Positions 33,472 through 41,301 of a DNA stretch of 64,000 nucleotides are shown here, one piece after another. The notes under the pieces are model-generated. The model had not been told where the DNA came from. It did not search any database and worked only from the letters and a program-made list of their open reading frames with translations. How positions within the stretch are numbered: position 1 is the stretch's first letter; the number at the start of each line of letters is the position of its first letter. This DNA comes from Marinobacter pelagius (GTDB lineage Bacteria; Pseudomonadota; Gammaproteobacteria; Pseudomonadales; Oleiphilaceae): the NCBI RefSeq assembly GCF_900114925.1, contig NZ_FOUR01000001.1, positions 248,001 through 312,000 of the forward strand, written 5' to 3'. A program made the translations under genes and the position numbers.

Positions 33472-34917
33472 TTACTGCCCTCCATTACGGGCCAGGTGCT
33501 CCCGGGCCAGATCGTGCAGGGAACGTTTCGCCGGAACCGGCGCGGTGTGGTTTTCGGTCCAGGGGCCGACGTTTTTCGGTGTCAGTTTGCGGAACCGGGT
33601 GGCCCCCCAGAGAAACAGACGGTAAAGGCCCGGGCTGGTATTGAGGGTCTGCCAGAACCGCCAGATCAGACGTTCCTTCCGGGAATACTTGGCCCCCCCA
33701 TCTTTCACCTTCGGCCCTTCGGCCGGGCTTTTCACATTTTCCTGGCGCAGGCGCTGGAGCAGTTCCGGGATCGGGATCTTCACCGGGCACACCTCGCCGC
33801 AGGCGCCGCACAGCGAGGAGGCACTGGGATGGTCCGGCACCTCGTGCAAGCCGACCATGTGCGGCGTTATGATCTTGCCGATTGGCCCCGGGTAAACCTC
33901 ACCGTAGGTGTGGCCACCCACTCGCGTGTATACCGGGCAATGGTTCATGCAGGCGCCGCAGCGGATGCAGTTGAGGGTCTGGCGCATCTGGGCATCGGCA
34001 AAGGCACCGCTGCGGCCATTGTCCAGCAACACCAGGTGAACCTCCTCCGGGCCGTCCAGCTCGTCGGCCTTGCGCGGGCCGGAGATCATGTTCACGTAGG
34101 TGGTGATCGGCTGACCCAGGGCGGAACGGGTCAGCAGGGACAGCAGCGGCACCACGTCCCGCAGGTTCTCCACCACTTTCTCGATCCCGGTCACGGCGAT
34201 GTGGACCGGGGGTGCCGTGGTGCTCATCCGGCCGTTACCTTCGTTCTCCACCAGCAGCAGGGTGCCGGTCTCGGCAATAGCGAAGTTCACACCGGAAACC
34301 CCGACATCCGCTTCCATGAACTTGCGGCGCAGTGTGCGGCGGCCGATCTGGATCAGCTCGTTGACGTCGTCCGTCTCCTCCACGCCCAGCTTGTCGTGGA
34401 ACAGTCGGGCCACCTGATGCCGGTTCTTGTGGATCGCCGGCATGATGATGTGGGAGGGTTTCTCACCGTCGAGCTGGACGATGTACTCGCCCATATCCGA
34501 CTCCAGGCACTCTACCCCACGCTCGGCGAGGTAGTCGTTCATCTCCATTTCCTCGCTGACCATGGACTTGCCCTTCACCACCTGCGAGCCCTGACGGGCC
34601 TGGATGATGCCATGGACAATCTCGTTGGCCTGTTCGGTGGTTTCGGCCCAGTGCACCCTCACGCCGTTGTCGGTCAGCTTTGCTTCGAGCTGCTCGAGCA
34701 GGTCCGGCAGCCGCGACAGGGCCCGGGCCTTGATGCGGTTGCCTAGCTCCCGCAGGCCCTCGCGCTCCTCCTCATCGGGGAAGGCATCGGCCCGCTTCTT
34801 CATCAGTGAATCCATGGCGGTGCGGAAGTTGGTCCGCAGCTGGCCGTCCGCCAGCGCGACTTCCGCCCGGTCCCGGAAACCACTGGTCAGTTCGGTAACA
34901 GGAATCCGCTGGCTCAT
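33472..34917 (-). CDS. lutB: L-lactate utilisation iron-sulfur protein LutB/LldF
   Basis: A 481-residue protein with an N-terminal LUD domain and a C-terminal pair of 4Fe-4S clusters. The cluster motifs are CIRCGACMNHCPVY near residue 319 and CGACGEVCPVKIPIP near residue 370. The DUF3390-like C-terminal tail is present. It carries electrons in the LutABC complex. Its ATG overlaps the lutA stop by four bases. Confidence 0.94.
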   Translation of the reverse strand: MSQRIPVTELTSGFRDRAEVALADGQLRTNFRTAMDSLMKKRADAFPDEEEREGLRELGNRIKARALSRLPDLLEQLEAKLTDNGVRVHWAETTEQANEIVHGIIQARQGSQVVKGKSMVSEEMEMNDYLAERGVECLESDMGEYIVQLDGEKPSHIIMPAIHKNRHQVARLFHDKLGVEETDDVNELIQIGRRTLRRKFMEADVGVSGVNFAIAETGTLLLVENEGNGRMSTTAPPVHIAVTGIEKVVENLRDVVPLLSLLTRSALGQPITTYVNMISGPRKADELDGPEEVHLVLLDNGRSGAFADAQMRQTLNCIRCGACMNHCPVYTRVGGHTYGEVYPGPIGKIITPHMVGLHEVPDHPSASSLCGACGEVCPVKIPIPELLQRLRQENVKSPAEGPKVKDGGAKYSRKERLIWRFWQTLNTSPGLYRLFLWGATRFRKLTPKNVGPWTENHTAPVPAKRSLHDLAREHLARNGGQ

Positions 34918-35741
34918 GCCCTGCCCTCCCCGCTCACCCGCTCCCAGAGGAAACTGGCCAGGTGCCGGCCCCGGAAGGCCTGCTGCTGTTTGTCCAGGGA
35001 ACCGTTAATGTTCATCAGGCAGCCGCCGTCGGCGGTAACCATTTCGTCGGCACCGGAGGCCATCAGGGATTGGGTCTTGTCCGTTACCATGGCGCCGGAG
35101 ACTTCCGGCATCCTTACTGAGAAGGTGCCGCCGAAGCCGCAACACTCGCTCTCGTGGTCGTGGTCTACCCGCTCCACGTTGGCCAGCTTGCCCAGCAGTT
35201 CCCGGGCATGGAGGTGGGTGTTCATCTCACGGCGGGCGGAACAGGAGGTATGCAGGGCGATCCGGGTGGGTTCACCCAGGTCCTTCCACTCAACCTGGCA
35301 GACGTTGAGCAGGAACTCGGTCAGCTCGAAGGTGCGCTCGGCCAGCGACGCCACCCGCTTGAGGGTGTCGGGCTCCTCGGCGAACAGTTCCCGGTAATGC
35401 TGGCGAAACATGCCTGCACAGGACCCTGAGGGCACCACCACCGGCATACCCGCATCGAGAACGGCCAGCTGCGCCCGGGCCACCTCGCGGGCCTCGGCCG
35501 CATAGCCGGAGGTCCAGGCCGGCTGACCACAGCAGCTCTGGCCTTCCGGGAAATGCACCCGGATGCCCTCGCGCTCAAGCAGACGAATGGCATCCAGACC
35601 CGCTTCCGGAAAGAACAGATCCACCACGCAGGTCCCGAACAGGATCACTTCCCGGGGTTTAGCGGGATACTGCCGCGGTCCGGGTCGCTCCGGGGCAACC
35701 CGGGTGGCATTCGGGGCAGCGTCGTAAAACAGTTCGTTCAT
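34914..35741 (-). CDS. lutA: L-lactate utilisation protein LutA/LldE
   Basis: A 275-residue protein with the two CCG domains of the family: GQSCCGQPAWTSG in the first half and SECCGFGGTFSV near residue 210. These bind an unusual iron-sulfur cluster in related heterodisulfide reductase subunits. I use the ATG at 35741 (MNELFYDAAP), which has AAGGAG seven bases upstream. A GTG 15 bp earlier includes that site in the coding part and is less likely. Confidence 0.93.
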   Translation of the reverse strand: MNELFYDAAPNATRVAPERPGPRQYPAKPREVILFGTCVVDLFFPEAGLDAIRLLEREGIRVHFPEGQSCCGQPAWTSGYAAEAREVARAQLAVLDAGMPVVVPSGSCAGMFRQHYRELFAEEPDTLKRVASLAERTFELTEFLLNVCQVEWKDLGEPTRIALHTSCSARREMNTHLHARELLGKLANVERVDHDHESECCGFGGTFSVRMPEVSGAMVTDKTQSLMASGADEMVTADGGCLMNINGSLDKQQQAFRGRHLASFLWERVSGEGRA

Positions 35742-35781
35742 GATCGGCTCCTTCACGGAAACGGCGCTCGCGCGCTTACAG

Positions 35782-37470
35782 TCAGACCAAAGGATCCACG
35801 ATGCCCAGGCCGTAGGCGGCGATCAGAGCAATCAGGCCGGTCATCAACAGGTAGTACAGGGTTGGCCAGACGGTCTTGCGCAGGGTCTGGCCCTCGCGGC
35901 CAAGCAGACCGACCGTGGCAGACGCGGCCACCACGTTGTGAATCGCCACCATGTTGCCGGCCGCCGCGCCCACTGCCTGAACCGCGACAATCAATGCGGT
36001 GGAAAGACCCAGGCTCTCGGCGACGCCGAACTGGAACTGGCTGAACATCATGTTGGACACGGTATTGGAGCCGGCGAGGAACGCGCCCATGGCACCAACG
36101 GCAGGCGCCAGCAGCGGATAGATGCCGCCGACGGTATCGGCCACCCAGGTGGCCATGGCAATGGGCATGCTCGGCAGGTCAGACAGGTTCACGCCGGAGT
36201 TGATCAGGATGCGCACCATGGGCACGGTGAACAGCAGCACGAAACCGGCGCTCAGCAGCACGCTGCCGGACTCCTTCACCGCAGCGGTCAGCTCCCGAAC
36301 CTGCATGCGATGGATGAAGAAGGTGGCGATCACCACCATCACCAGGATACCGCCGGGCAGGTACAGCGGCTGCACGCCGGCGTTGATGCCCGTCTCGCCC
36401 AGGATGTTGGAGAAACCCACGCCCACGGAGGTGAAGGCCGCCTTGACCTCAGGGATCACCCGGCTGATCACCAGCACCACGCCCACCAGCACGTAGGGCA
36501 GCCAGGCACGGAAGCCACTCATGGGCTTGGCGGCGAGATCTTCCAGCTTCATCTCGATACGACCGAACCACTCGGACGGCCACTGGTCACGGGGCGCAAA
36601 ATCCCAGGCGGTTTTCGGCAGCAGGAAGCCCTTACGGGCGGCCGTGGTGACAATGGCCAGACCGATCAGGCCGCCCAGCAAAGACGGGAACTCGGGGCCG
36701 AGAATCACGCCGGTCAGGGCATAGGGCACGACAAAGGAAATGCCGGCAAACAGGGCAAACGGCAGCACCTCAAGGCCTTCGCGCCAGCTTTTGTTCTTGC
36801 CGAAGAAGCGGGTCATCATCATGACCATGAACAGCGGCATAAGCACGCCCACGATGGCGTGGGTGATGGCCACCTCGGAGGTGATCAGTTGCAGGTACTG
36901 ATCCCAGTTGGACCCCAGCTGTTCCAGCCGACCGCTGATGGTGTTGCGGTCCAGGCCGGTGGTGACACCCACGATGATCGGTGTGCCGACCGCGCCGAAG
37001 GACACCGGTGTGCTCTGCACCATCATGCCCAGCATGACCGCTGCCATGGCGGGGAAGCCGACGGCCACCAGCAAAGGCGCGGCGATGGCCGCCGGGGTGC
37101 CGAAGCCAGAGGCACCCTCGATAAAGGAGCCGAACAGCCAGACGATGATGATCGCCTGTACCCGACGGTCCGGGCTGATGTTGGTGAAGCCCGCCCGGAT
37201 GGCGGTGATAGCCCCGGAATGTTTCAGAGTGTTCAGCAGCAGGATGGCGCCGAAGATGATCCACAGCAGACCAAGGGTGATCACCAGACCCTGCAGCGAG
37301 GACGCCAGGATACGGTTGAAACTCATGTCCCAGCCGGTATAGGCAATCAGGGCCGTAACCAGGAACACCAGTGGCATGGCACGGCGGGCCGGCCAGCGCA
37401 GGCCGAGCAACAGAATCCCGGCCAGGAGGATGGGCGTAAACGCCAAGAGGGCGAGCAATCCGGACGACAT
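35782..37470 (-). CDS. lldP: L-lactate permease
   Basis: A 562-residue LctP family lactate:proton symporter with 12 to 14 hydrophobic segments. Family signatures include [38 protein letters not shown] and [14 protein letters not shown] near the C-terminus. It is first in the lldP-lutABC operon and imports the substrate of LutABC. The ATG at 37470 follows TTGGAG; an upstream TTG would include that site. A perfect LldR-type operator lies 40 bp upstream. Confidence 0.94.
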
Positions 37471-37509
37471 ACAAATCTCCAAATCTTGTTTTTGGAATCT
37501 TTATCGGAT

Positions 37510-37699: not shown

Positions 37700-38476
37700 A
37701 TGGCCATCGGACACATTGCGCCCCGGCGCCTGGCCGACACCATCGTCGAGCAACTGGAAACCATGATTCTGGAAGGAACCCTGCAGCCGGGAGAGCGGCT
37801 GCCACCGGAACGGGTTCTGGCCGAGCAGTTCGGGGTGTCACGGCCTTCGCTTCGGGAAGCGGTGCAGAAGCTGGCCGCCAAGGGGCTACTCACCAGCCGC
37901 CAGGGCGGCGGTAATTTTATCACCGAAAACCTCGGCTCCAGTTTCAGTGACCCGCTGATCTCGCTGCTGGAAGATCGCCCCGAGGCCCAGCGCGACCTGC
38001 TGGAATTCCGCCGTACCCTGGAGGCGGACTGCGCCTATTACGCCGCCCTGAGAGCTACCGAAGTGGACCGGGAACATCTCCAGGCCGCCTACGATGAACT
38101 CCAGGCCTGCTATGAGAAAGATTCCGAGCGGGATCTGGAAGCGGAAGGCGCCGCCGACGCCCGCTTCCACCTGGCCATCGCCGAAGCCAGTCACAACGTC
38201 ATTCTGCTGCACACCATCCGTACCCTGTTCAACATGCTCAAGAGCAGTGTGGTGACCAACATCGGCGGCATGTACGCCAGGGAAGCGGAGACCCGGGAAG
38301 GTCTCAAGCAGCAGCACCGACTGCTGTTCAATGCCATCATGCAGGGGCGCGCGGAGGATGCCCGGGAACTCGCCGGCACCCACATCCAGTATGTGCAGCA
38401 GGTGCTCTCCGAGCGCAGCGAAAGCCACCGGCGCCTGGAGCGGGCCATTCGCCGGGACAGCCTGACCCGAACCTGA
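37700..38476 (+). CDS. lldR: FadR-subfamily GntR regulator of lactate utilisation
   Basis: A 258-residue regulator, the same length as E. coli LldR. The winged-helix domain is at residues 8-78 (LPPERVLAEQFGVSRPSLREAVQKLAAKGLL, then RQGGGNFI). The FCD ligand domain has DARFHLAIAEASHNVILLHTIRTLF and a late QHRLLFNAI helix, with His residues that bind metal in this family. It is divergent from lldP-lutABC, and paired TTGGT/ACCAA sites flank the gap. L-lactate is the expected inducer. Confidence 0.9.
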   Translation: MAIGHIAPRRLADTIVEQLETMILEGTLQPGERLPPERVLAEQFGVSRPSLREAVQKLAAKGLLTSRQGGGNFITENLGSSFSDPLISLLEDRPEAQRDLLEFRRTLEADCAYYAALRATEVDREHLQAAYDELQACYEKDSERDLEAEGAADARFHLAIAEASHNVILLHTIRTLFNMLKSSVVTNIGGMYAREAETREGLKQQHRLLFNAIMQGRAEDARELAGTHIQYVQQVLSERSESHRRLERAIRRDSLTRT

Positions 38477-38479
38477 GGT

Positions 38480-39238
38480 TCAGAGCTTCTCCCAGACCGT
38501 CACTTCCGAGAAGCTGTGCTGGAACTTGTTCCGGGTCTCCCGGATCACAAACGGCACACTGTGGGGATCCACCAGCAGCCGGAAATGGGGCGCCAGCATA
38601 TCCTGCAGGCCGTCAAGGGTGGTGTAGTCCTCGCCGTCCTTGCGGAATCCACCGACCCAGGCCTCCCGGGGCGTGTATTCCTCCAGCCAGGTGTACGGGG
38701 AGGCAATGACCAGCAGGCCGTTGTCAGTGATGCGCTCGTGGATGGTGGTGAGGAACTTTGACGGCTGGTACAGGCGATCGATCAGGTTGGCCGCCAGCAC
38801 CAGGTCGTAGCCGGTGAACCGGGGATTGAGATCACAGGCATCACCCTGATGGAACGCTACCCTGCCAACCGTATCCTCGAGCCCCAGAGACGCCAGGGTC
38901 CGCTCCTGGTAACTCACCAGTTCGCCCTCTTCCGGCCGGGCGTAGCGCATCTGCTTCTGCTTCGCCATTTCCGCCGCAGAGCTGACAAAACTCTCGGAAA
39001 AATCGACACCGTCGACGTGGTCAAAGCGGGTGGCCAGCTCGAAGGTGGCCCGGCCGCAGGCACAGCCCAGATCCAGAGCCTTGCCGTGATCCCGGCCGTT
39101 CATCGCATCGAAACACAGCCGCGCCAGTTCCTGGGGGAAGTTCGGCTCGCCGTGCCAGGATTCACCAAAGTGGAATTCCAGGTACTGCGCCAGTGTGGTG
39201 TCGTTCTCGTAATAGCCGCTGGGCTCGTTCACGTGCAT
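38480..39238 (-). CDS. SAM-dependent methyltransferase resembling the OvoA C-terminal domain (putative 4-mercaptohistidine N1-methyltransferase)
   Basis: A 252-residue class I methyltransferase. Motif I is LDLGCACGRATFELA near residue 55. It also carries VDGVDFSESF, QGDACDLN, YDLVLAANLIDRLYQPSKFL and SPYTWLEEYTPREAW. I recognise these from the C-terminal domain of OvoA, which N-methylates 5-thiohistidine in ovothiol A synthesis. No sulfoxide synthase domain is present or adjacent, so this is a stand-alone version. GAGGA sits one base before the ATG but seven bases before a GTG at 39232, so the latter may be the true start. It converges with lldR three bases from its stop. Confidence 0.75.
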   Translation of the reverse strand: MHVNEPSGYYENDTTLAQYLEFHFGESWHGEPNFPQELARLCFDAMNGRDHGKALDLGCACGRATFELATRFDHVDGVDFSESFVSSAAEMAKQKQMRYARPEEGELVSYQERTLASLGLEDTVGRVAFHQGDACDLNPRFTGYDLVLAANLIDRLYQPSKFLTTIHERITDNGLLVIASPYTWLEEYTPREAWVGGFRKDGEDYTTLDGLQDMLAPHFRLLVDPHSVPFVIRETRNKFQHSFSEVTVWEKL

Positions 39239-39278: not shown

Positions 39279-40424
39279 TCAGTCGCCCGCCAGTTTCGGG
39301 TACAGGGGTTCCACTACCGGTTTCAGCCCCTTGGCGTCGTCAATAAACAGTTGCAGGTGCGGGAAAGGTATCTCGATACCGGCGGCATCCAGTGCCTCTT
39401 TGATCTGCTCGAGAATCTCGGCCATGATCCTGGGCTGAACGTCCAGGTTGTCCGGCGTGATCCACACCTGTGCTTTCAGGTTGACCGAGGAATCCCCCAG
39501 ACTCTCCATCAGCACCCTGGGCTCCATGCCCGCCGACTGCAATGCTTCCGGGTGCGCGCGCAAGACCGGCATGATGACTTCCCGGGCCGCTTTTGCCGAC
39601 TCCTTGTAGGCGATGCCCACCGGAATGTTCAATCGTGTCGCGCCCTCGGCGCTGTAATTGATGATATCGGAGGACGCCACGCTGTCGTTGGGAATCATGG
39701 TGAAAATGTTGTCCCGGGTCCGCAGCCAGGTGGTACGCAGGGCGATCTTCACCACCTTGCCATCCTGGCCGTTGATCGTCACCCAGTCCCCGATGCGAAA
39801 AGGCCGCTCGATCAGCAGGGTGATACCGGCGATAAAGTTGGACAGCGTGGACTGGGCGGCAAAACCCACCGCGATACCGACGATACCCAGTCCGGCCACG
39901 ATCGAGACCACGTCGAATCCGAATTGGGCAACCACCGTGACCACCGCAAAAGTGACCGCCAGCACCGAGAACAGGTTCTCCACCAGCTGCCGGATCGAGG
40001 GATCCATCCGGTAGCGGGTCATCGTCTCCCGGATCAGGCGGCCAAGCACCAGCCAGGCCACGAAGAAACCGAGCGCCATCAGGCCGGCCTTCGCCATCGC
40101 TGCCAGGAACGCGGCGCCCGCCCCGAACTGGGCCAGAATCACCAGTAACGCGCCAAGGCCCATGAGGTAGCGCACCCCGGTGCGCACATGGCCGAACAAC
40201 GGATGAGCGGCCCGGCGCTTGCCAACCACCAGCCGGATCAGGCCGATCACAACCAGGTAGACGCCAACGAACAGGGCGACATAGAACACCGATATCAGCA
40301 ACTGGCTGAAAGCGTGGATCGCAAATGCTCCCCAATCCAGTTCCCCGCCACCGAGCGCATCGACGGTATCCCCGAGGTTTTTCTTGAGCTGCTCGACCAC
40401 AGCCCCGGTAAAAGTCTCAGCCAT
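39279..40424 (-). CDS. Small-conductance mechanosensitive channel, MscS family
   Basis: A 381-residue inner-membrane protein. Hydrophobic helices lie at about residues 30-55, 78-98 and 105-125, followed by the pore helix region VSIVAGLGIVGIAVGFAAQSTLSNFIAG, then the MscS beta domain (RPFRIGDWVTINGQDGKVVKI, TMIPNDSVASSDIINYS). The cytoplasmic alpha-beta domain ends with IPFPHLQLFI, typical of MscS. It releases solutes on hypo-osmotic shock. It overlaps the upstream Nmad3-type gene by eight bases, so the two are co-translated. Confidence 0.92.
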   Translation of the reverse strand: MAETFTGAVVEQLKKNLGDTVDALGGGELDWGAFAIHAFSQLLISVFYVALFVGVYLVVIGLIRLVVGKRRAAHPLFGHVRTGVRYLMGLGALLVILAQFGAGAAFLAAMAKAGLMALGFFVAWLVLGRLIRETMTRYRMDPSIRQLVENLFSVLAVTFAVVTVVAQFGFDVVSIVAGLGIVGIAVGFAAQSTLSNFIAGITLLIERPFRIGDWVTINGQDGKVVKIALRTTWLRTRDNIFTMIPNDSVASSDIINYSAEGATRLNIPVGIAYKESAKAAREVIMPVLRAHPEALQSAGMEPRVLMESLGDSSVNLKAQVWITPDNLDVQPRIMAEILEQIKEALDAAGIEIPFPHLQLFIDDAKGLKPVVEPLYPKLAGD

Positions 40425-41301
40425 TGCCCGCTTCCTTGTTATCAGTGCCGACGCCTGTCCCGATCAGCCGGGCCAGCCAGGGCAGCAATTCGGGGTAGGC
40501 ATCCAGGTCCAGCACGAACTCCTGCCCCCGCGCTGCACTGGTCAAATAACACCAGGGTGGATCCAGGCGCCAGCGATCCGGGTTTGAATGATAGCTTAGC
40601 GCCGGTTTGCCCCCGACAGGAAAAAATTCCCCGGGCAGGCGCCATCGTGTGGCCAGCCGGGCCTGTGGGTCGGTCAGCAACAACTGCTCCTCAAGCCGCG
40701 GGAACACGCCACTTCCCTGCATCAGGGAGCCATGTTCCGGCAACCTCCAGCCGTCCGACGCCAGGTACAGGGTGTTGCCCGGATCCGGTCCGCGGTAAAA
40801 ATGCGGGTGGTACCGGGCCCAGGGCAAGGTCTCCGGCGCCAGATCATCCACAGTCAACACCTGGCCAACGTGCAACCAGCCCCAGATGGCATGGAAGGGC
40901 CGGGTACCGGGAATAAAGCGCCAGCGACGGCGCACCATCTCAGCCCTTCGGAATACGCCAAAAAACAGAAACAGATCGCCCTCACCCACACCCTGATTGC
41001 TCAGATGCCCCTGGGCAGAACCTGTCTGGCCGAGCAGGGGCCGCCATCCCGGCTGACGCGGAAGGGCTCCGGCCACCAGGTCCGGATCCAGGTGCGCCCC
41101 GGAACCACCCCGCACCCGTCCACCGGAAAGGTCCCGGGCAATCTTGCCCAGACGGCGCGGCCCGAAAGACACGTCGTCATAACGGATTTGCGACAGCGGG
41201 TCGGGAATCGGCAGGACACAGAGGGAACCATCGGGCAACACCGGGCTGGGACAGCCCCCGGCAGAGGAATCAAAGCCTTTCCGGCTCAGGATCAGTCGCA
41301 C
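40417..41301 (-). CDS. Nmad3-type putative nucleotide-modification protein
   Basis: A 294-residue protein whose start RLILSRKGFDSSAGGCPSP and the later IRYDDVSFGPRRLGKIARDL, AHLDPDL, GQTGSAQGHLSNQGVGEGDLFLFFGVFRR and AIWGWLHVGQVL match my memory of the Nmad3 (nucleotide modification associated domain 3) family. Its biochemical activity is not established. GTG at 41301 gives the family's usual N-terminus, with CAGGAG five bases upstream. The open frame further upstream is antisense to the phosphoesterase and is excluded. It is divergent from that gene and overlaps mscS. Confidence 0.75.
   Translation of the reverse strand: MRLILSRKGFDSSAGGCPSPVLPDGSLCVLPIPDPLSQIRYDDVSFGPRRLGKIARDLSGGRVRGGSGAHLDPDLVAGALPRQPGWRPLLGQTGSAQGHLSNQGVGEGDLFLFFGVFRRAEMVRRRWRFIPGTRPFHAIWGWLHVGQVLTVDDLAPETLPWARYHPHFYRGPDPGNTLYLASDGWRLPEHGSLMQGSGVFPRLEEQLLLTDPQARLATRWRLPGEFFPVGGKPALSYHSNPDRWRLDPPWCYLTSAARGQEFVLDLDAYPELLPWLARLIGTGVGTDNKEAGNG

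What the first reader, a model, noticed from the sequence alone, without database searches (positions are those of the whole stretch)
38480..39238. Stand-alone OvoA-like methyltransferase without the sulfoxide synthase
The sequence matches the C-terminal methyltransferase domain of OvoA, which completes ovothiol A. In known OvoA this domain is fused to the sulfoxide synthase. A separate gene suggests a split ovothiol pathway, or methylation of a different thiol-histidine compound.
Basis: partly seen in the sequence, partly recalled or inferred. Interest (0 to 1): 0.55.

Follow-up and report, generated by a model that had tools for sequence, protein, structure and literature searches.

The report
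Ovoselenol-pathway methyltransferase derived from OvoA
A lone gene resembling the methylating half of the ovothiol enzyme is real, but its genome has the machinery for the selenium relative ovoselenol rather than for ovothiol, so it most likely finishes that compound in place of the usual dedicated enzyme.

Summary
The ORF (38480-39238, minus strand, 252 aa) is a full-length TIGR04345 methyltransferase (324 bits, cut-off 170) with no sulfoxide-synthase half. Stand-alone relatives are already known (PDB OvoM 9bxl, OvsM 9bxh), so standing alone is not new. A split ovothiol pathway is not supported: the genome has no 5-histidylcysteine sulfoxide synthase above cut-off and no EgtD. It does have a selenoxide synthase OvsA (669 bits to PDB 8u41, 66% identity), SenB and SelD on other contigs. 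In 124 genomes of the genus (Marinobacter), OvsA and SenB occur in the same 108; a solo methyltransferase occurs in 104 of these and in 1 of the other 16. The new point: 34 genomes carry true OvsM directly behind ovsA, whereas the window's gene belongs to a separate, unlinked clade nested among OvoA methyltransferase domains, with the OvoA-type Trp184 (Leu in OvsM). Most likely it methylates 5-selenohistidine to ovoselenol, as an OvoA-derived replacement for OvsM. The substrate is inferred, not shown.

The parts
38480..39238 (-). solo OvoA-type (TIGR04345) SAM-dependent methyltransferase, 252 aa (P0001)
39050..39076 (-). SAM-binding motif LDLGCACGR (residues 55-63)
   Evidence: mostly invariant in the alignments; its role as SAM motif is recalled from general knowledge of class I methyltransferases
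38687..38689 (-). codon of Trp184 (SPYT-W): W in 62/62 OvoA-type rows, L in 33/33 OvsM rows, W in 68/68 of the window's clade
39279..40424 (-). MscS-type mechanosensitive channel, 40 bp upstream on the same strand; possible operon partner; directly upstream in 21 of 73 unlinked loci of relatives
37700..38476 (+). GntR/FCD regulator beside the lactate genes, convergent with the methyltransferase; a match lies downstream within about 2.5 kb in 34 of 73 unlinked loci (synteny marker, not part of the pathway)

Best explanation
The gene encodes the last enzyme of a scattered ovoselenol pathway. SelD makes selenophosphate, SenB makes a selenosugar, OvsA joins its selenium to histidine as a selenoxide that yields 5-selenohistidine, and this methyltransferase then uses SAM to methylate the imidazole, giving ovoselenol. 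By descent it is not the dedicated OvsM that sits behind ovsA in other Marinobacter species. It is an OvoA-type methyltransferase domain without its sulfoxide synthase that took OvsM's place. Shown: the gene, its clade, its active-site signature, and co-occurrence with OvsA and SenB. Inferred: substrate, product and the replacement itself. The chemistry of the steps is recalled or taken from PDB titles and search listings.
For: Own genome: OvsA P0002 668.9 bits to 8u41 against 198.6 for EgtB, 173.4 for SenA and 74.4 for OvoA; SenB 415.8 bits; a 758-aa oxidoreductase-SelD fusion convergent with senB; no EgtD and no OvoA synthase over cut-off. Genus, 124 genomes: OvsA and SenB in the same 108; solo methyltransferase in 104 of 108 against 1 of 16 (Fisher 7.5e-15; the one is a 58%-complete genome); among 37 genomes with fused OvoA, solo in 26 of 30 with OvsA and 0 of 7 without (p 3.2e-5); the 4 OvsA genomes without a solo enzyme all carry fused OvoA (p 0.005, or 0.008 if three interrupted OvoA genes are counted too). 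In 34 genomes the solo enzyme match lies 23-57 bp behind ovsA on the same strand, and that type is one clade with PDB OvsM (97*; 88/93). The window's type forms a clade of 68 (99*; 33 thinned rows 100/99*) inside OvoA domains. A second group (G223, G224, G293) arose from Marinobacter OvoA itself (97*, 100/99*), again in OvsA genomes. OvsA of both kinds interleaves on one tree. Purifying selection.
Against: No activity data. The enzyme keeps the OvoA-type Trp184, has no OvsM-like change at the nine columns that separate OvsM from OvoA types, and scores slightly better to OvoM (242.7) than to OvsM (232.3); it might prefer 5-thiohistidine. It is unlinked to ovsA, senB and selD. The genomes are related, so the Fisher values overstate the evidence. 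The AU test against one clade with OvsM gives only p 0.038, and the group was named after a tree was seen. Support for Halomonas OvoA as sister is weak in the careful tree (84/60), whose bootstrap had not settled. NCBIfam names P0002 SenA (432 against 420).
Confidence: 0.72

Rival explanations
1. Split ovothiol pathway: a separate synthase makes 5-thiohistidine from histidine and cysteine, and this enzyme makes ovothiol A.
For: OvoA-type active site and descent; a stand-alone OvoM is known from Sulfuricurvum.
Against: The one TIGR04344 match in the genome is OvsA. SenB is present in exactly the OvsA genomes. None of the 7 genomes with fused OvoA but without OvsA has a solo enzyme. That OvsA might also use a sulfur donor was not testable.
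Confidence: 0.1
2. It is the ordinary OvsM that has merely moved away from ovsA.
For: Same genomes, and complementary to the operonic OvsM: of the 104 OvsA genomes with a solo enzyme, 34 have the operonic type and 70 only an unlinked type.
Against: Separate clades, AU p 0.038, Trp184 not Leu in 68 of 68, 49% median identity to OvsM rows against 63% to Marinobacter OvoA domains.
Confidence: 0.05
3. It is a salvage enzyme that methylates imported 5-thiohistidine or another imidazole, and its co-occurrence with OvsA is a by-product of common ancestry.
For: No linkage to the pathway genes; a neighbouring mscS in part of the genus.
Against: OvsA was not found without some TIGR04345 enzyme: 108 of 108 in the genus, and in G526, the one other OvsA genome (60% identity) found among 369 sampled from the class.
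Confidence: 0.1
4. It is a decaying leftover of OvoA.
For: Derived from OvoA domains.
Against: dN/dS 0.05-0.09 for the window's gene; 0.054 and 0.069 within the second group; TIGR04345 matched without internal stops in every row.
Confidence: 0.03

Closest known systems
OvsM (5-selenohistidine N-methyltransferase, PDB 9bxh/9bxj/9bxk, Marinimicrobium koreense)
   Same: Fold (TM 0.91-0.92), TIGR04345 family (its kin in the genus), occurrence with OvsA and SenB in this genus
   Different: 46% identity; separate clade; Trp184 not Leu; not beside ovsA
C-terminal methyltransferase domain of OvoA (8khq and the fused Marinobacter/Halomonas proteins)
   Same: Same clade as the Marinobacter and Halomonas domains, up to 67% identity, Trp184
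   Different: No sulfoxide synthase half; the genome has no OvoA synthase above cut-off
OvoM (stand-alone 5-thiohistidine N-methyltransferase, PDB 9bxl, Sulfuricurvum)
   Same: Stand-alone, Trp at position 184, fold
   Different: 46% identity; here the genome has no recognised source of 5-thiohistidine

Membership tests
TIGR04345 ovoA_Cterm | score over curated cut-off, full profile | tested here: met
   324.2 against 170 bits, profile 1-242/242
OvsM | same clade as characterised OvsM | tested here: not met
   AU p 0.038 against one clade
OvsM | Leu after SPYT (diagnostic column found here, not from a paper) | tested here: not met
   W in window; L in 33/33 OvsM rows, and in 34/34 linked genomes once L369 and L370 are added
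OvsM | genome with OvsA and SenB | tested here: met
OvsM | methylates 5-selenohistidine | not testable with these tools
   needs an enzyme assay
OvoA | sulfoxide synthase domain fused N-terminally | tested here: not met
   252 aa; no remnant in window
OvoM | OvoA-type active site | tested here: met
   W184
OvoM | genome makes 5-thiohistidine by a 5-histidylcysteine sulfoxide synthase | tested here: not met
   TIGR04344 best 113.8 against cut-off 400, and that gene is OvsA
ovoselenol pathway | OvsA selenoxide synthase | tested here: met
   668.9 bits, 66% identity to 8u41. Against: NCBIfam, with no OvsA model among its five hits, calls it SenA (432 against 420)
ovoselenol pathway | SenB and SelD | tested here: met
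selenoneine pathway | EgtD for hercynine | tested here: not met
   no match at E<=1; a SenA locus elsewhere (L342) has EgtD and SenB beside it

The most novel reading that the evidence does not exclude
In Marinobacter the selenium pathway's own methyltransferase OvsM has been replaced, at least twice independently, by methyltransferase domains taken from the sulfur pathway's OvoA. In genomes with OvsA and only fused OvoA (G261, G267, G277, G286), OvoA's methyltransferase half finishes ovoselenol in trans. So ovothiol and ovoselenol synthesis share one interchangeable, chalcogen-blind final step.
Probability: 0.5. Interest if true: 0.62.

Novelty: new variant of a known kind. Interest (0 to 1): 0.5.

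Why it matters
It makes a clean prediction about a recently found selenium metabolite: many marine bacteria would make ovoselenol with a methyltransferase that annotation assigns to ovothiol. A search that required an ovsA-ovsM pair would find it in only 34 of the 108 OvsA genomes here. The genus also offers a natural series (operonic OvsM, OvoA-derived solo enzyme, fused OvoA only) for asking how sulfur and selenium are told apart.

Tried and rejected
Rejected: EgtB/ergothioneine and selenoneine (no EgtD; of the weaker OvsA hits outside the genus, 41-48%, I inspected two, L342 and L343, and both are SenA; the others were not inspected). Rejected: an OvoA remnant next to the window gene (the remnants at L112 and L135 belong to interrupted OvoA genes in G211 and G245). 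Rejected: relocation of OvsM. Looked for convergence of the window's clade toward OvsM at the columns that separate OvsM from OvoA: none; only E31, S242 and F243 mark the clade. Promoter scan: 1 found, shuffles 1.2; terminators 5 found, shuffles 3.0 with sd 1.8: nothing clear. One search mixed two query proteins; it was repeated with one query and its numbers are not used. Literature: no paper in the library holds Marinobacter with ovothiol or with selenoneine; 'ovoselenol' is in 2 papers; searches for OvoM, OvsA and OvsM as words brought only unrelated papers in the 20 rows listed of each. The key paper (Kayrouz et al. 2024, Nat Chem, known from the reference list) is not held, so I cannot say whether it already notes the unlinked type.

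Weak points of counting: a solo gene was defined as an open frame under 600 aa. This put four fragments among the 110 solo hits (G211:C32, G291:C35, G245:C1:209411, and G274:C310, which is cut by its contig end); each of those genomes also has an intact solo gene, so the 105 genomes with a solo gene stand. If the interrupted OvoA of G211, G291 and G245 is counted as OvoA, the figures become 29 of 33 with a solo gene against 0 of 7 (p 1.8e-5) and p 0.008 for the four. Two of the 108 OvsA genes are in pieces (G245, G254) and one is a contig-end fragment (G286). G278 holds two solo genes identical, in the aligned part, to those of two other genomes and may be a mixed assembly. The OvsA tree lacks G299, G245, G254 and G286.

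Full report
What is there. The ORF at 38480-39238 is on the minus strand and encodes 252 aa. It matches TIGR04345, the OvoA C-terminal methyltransferase, over the full profile at 324.2 bits (cut-off 170), and it is the only gene over cut-off in the genome. Its closest solved structures by sequence are the OvoA of 8khq (271.8 bits), OvoM 9bxl (242.7) and OvsM 9bxh (232.3). The predicted structure (pLDDT 86.5) gives the same three at TM 0.90-0.92, far ahead of the next match. That such an enzyme can stand alone is already known: 9bxl is titled OvoM from Sulfuricurvum and 9bxh OvsM from Marinimicrobium koreense.

What else the genome has. The window is part of a 3.8-Mb genome in 16 contigs, listed as 100% complete. 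The one match to the OvoA synthase half, TIGR04344, is 113.8 bits against a cut-off of 400, on another contig. That protein (P0002) matches PDB OvsA 8u41 at 668.9 bits over 441 of its 449 residues, against 198.6 for EgtB, 173.4 for SenA and 74.4 for OvoA; identity to 8u41 is 66.1% over 436 aligned residues. NCBIfam names it SenA (432.0 against 420), a model that two SenA proteins of other genomes match better (516.2 and 514.5). EgtD is absent at E<=1. SenB is present on a third contig (415.8 bits), overlapping by four bases the end of a convergent, intact 758-aa oxidoreductase-SelD fusion. This is the enzyme set of ovoselenol, not of ovothiol, ergothioneine or selenoneine. That SenB is a Se-glycosyltransferase comes from abstracts in a search listing (PMC10702425 and PMC10891094). 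Ovoselenol as a bacterial selenometabolite comes from passages of PMC13188914; PMC12631010, of which I read the first of three parts, also names it. The reaction order of OvsA and OvsM is recalled and agrees with the PDB titles.

Co-occurrence. All 124 held genomes of the genus were searched. OvsA is in 108 and SenB in 108, and they are the same genomes. A solo methyltransferase is in 104 of the 108 and in 1 of the 16 without OvsA, a 58%-complete genome (Fisher 7.5e-15). Fused OvoA is in 37 genomes: 30 with OvsA, 26 of which also have a solo enzyme, and 7 without OvsA, none of which has one (p 3.2e-5). The four OvsA genomes that lack a solo enzyme (G261, G267, G277, G286) all have fused OvoA (p 0.005; 0.008 if three interrupted OvoA genes are counted as OvoA). 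So OvsA always comes with some TIGR04345 enzyme here (108 of 108), and the solo enzyme follows the selenium genes, not OvoA. The genomes share ancestry, so these p values are too small by an unknown factor. Outside the genus, a sample of 369 genomes of the class, which includes the window's own, gave one further OvsA (G526, 60%), and that genome has a solo enzyme about 23 kb away on the same contig. An order-level sample of 194 genomes gave no OvsA outside the genus; its three hits at 45-46% include the two SenA loci inspected. Of 80 named loci nearest to the query in a capped scan of genome contigs, the unfused ones with no synthase match beside them are Marinobacter, apart from two frames cut by contig ends (L225, L251).

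Two kinds of solo enzyme. In 34 genomes the enzyme's match lies 23-57 bp downstream of ovsA on the same strand; 76 solo hits are unlinked. The linked type forms one clade (32 rows, SH-aLRT 99*) that joins PDB OvsM (97*; 88/93 in the careful tree) and, in the careful tree, the enzyme of G526 (90/59), which also has Leu at position 184 (sequence printed). The window's enzyme falls in a clade of 68 unlinked enzymes (99*; 33 rows at 100/99* in the thinned careful tree) nested within the OvoA domains of Marinobacter, Halomonas, Shewanella and kin (99*; 100/99*). Forcing the window's clade and the OvsM clade together costs 59 log units (AU p 0.038; the group was named after a tree was seen). Position 184 separates the kinds completely: Leu in 33 of 33 OvsM rows, Trp in 62 of 62 OvoA-type rows (four divergent fused rows were left out of that count; they also have Trp), and Trp in 68 of 68 of the window's clade. 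The two remaining linked genomes also have Leu. Three further genomes (G223, G224, G293) have solo enzymes nested in Marinobacter OvoA next to the fused proteins of G190 and G267 (97*; 100/99* with G190 in the thinned tree), a second and later release. G270 (L149) may be a third, but its branch is long and unresolved. On the OvsA tree (104 genus rows plus 8u41) linked and unlinked genomes interleave. One tight OvsA clade of five holds fused-only (G267), second-release (G223, G224, G293) and solo-plus-fused (G190) genomes. The deepest genus branches are of the linked type, although one of them is a long branch that meets the long outgroup, and the root rests on one row.

Place and selection. 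The unlinked gene sits in a partly conserved place: of 73 unlinked loci fetched (two of them interrupted OvoA genes), 21 have the window's mscS directly upstream and 34 a match to the window's lactate regulator downstream, 14 both, 32 neither. In the window, mscS ends 40 bp upstream on the same strand, so co-transcription is possible; the promoter and terminator scan is inconclusive. dN/dS against six relatives is 0.05-0.09, and 0.054 and 0.069 within the second-release group.

How it most likely works. 5-Selenohistidine from OvsA is N-methylated by this enzyme with SAM to give ovoselenol. The steps shown here are gene content, clade, active-site signature and co-occurrence; the substrate is inferred. 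Against this stands the OvoA-type active site, which has not moved toward OvsM at any of the nine separating columns; the enzyme may act on both chalcogens or prefer sulfur. The most economical history is that OvsM behind ovsA is ancestral in the genus and an OvoA-type domain took over, but the direction rests on the OvsA tree only.

Novelty. The parts are known; the combination, an OvoA-derived solo enzyme in place of OvsM in a dispersed ovoselenol pathway, is a variant I did not find described in the library, with the key paper unread.

Noticed in passing
L371:1932-4208 (own genome, contig 13): selD is fused to a pyridine nucleotide-disulfide oxidoreductase (758 aa) and overlaps the convergent senB by four bases.
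   Followed up: partly
L062, L112, L135 (G291, G211, G245): Interrupted ovoA genes (an in-frame stop in G291; pieces apart in G211 and G245) in genomes that keep an intact solo methyltransferase. OvsA itself is in two pieces in G245.
   Followed up: partly
L345 and L366 (G526): OvsA and a second, SenA-like synthase (42% to P0002) lie within 1.2 kb of each other, with an ORF that looks SelD-like by eye directly behind OvsA (L345:2907-3962; no family search made); possibly both selenometabolite routes in one cluster.
   Followed up: no
window 39146-39148 (residue 31 of the minus-strand ORF): Glu31 is in 68 of 68 rows of the window's clade where OvoA-type and OvsM rows have mostly Val (0.95 and 0.91); its role is unknown.
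   Followed up: no
window 33472-37482: Lactate-utilisation genes (LutB-like, CCG-domain protein, lactate permease) and a GntR/FCD regulator border the methyltransferase.
   Followed up: partly
window 40417-41208: Nmad3 (nucleotide modification associated domain 3) protein next to mscS, with matches near the solo methyltransferase in part of the genus.
   Followed up: no
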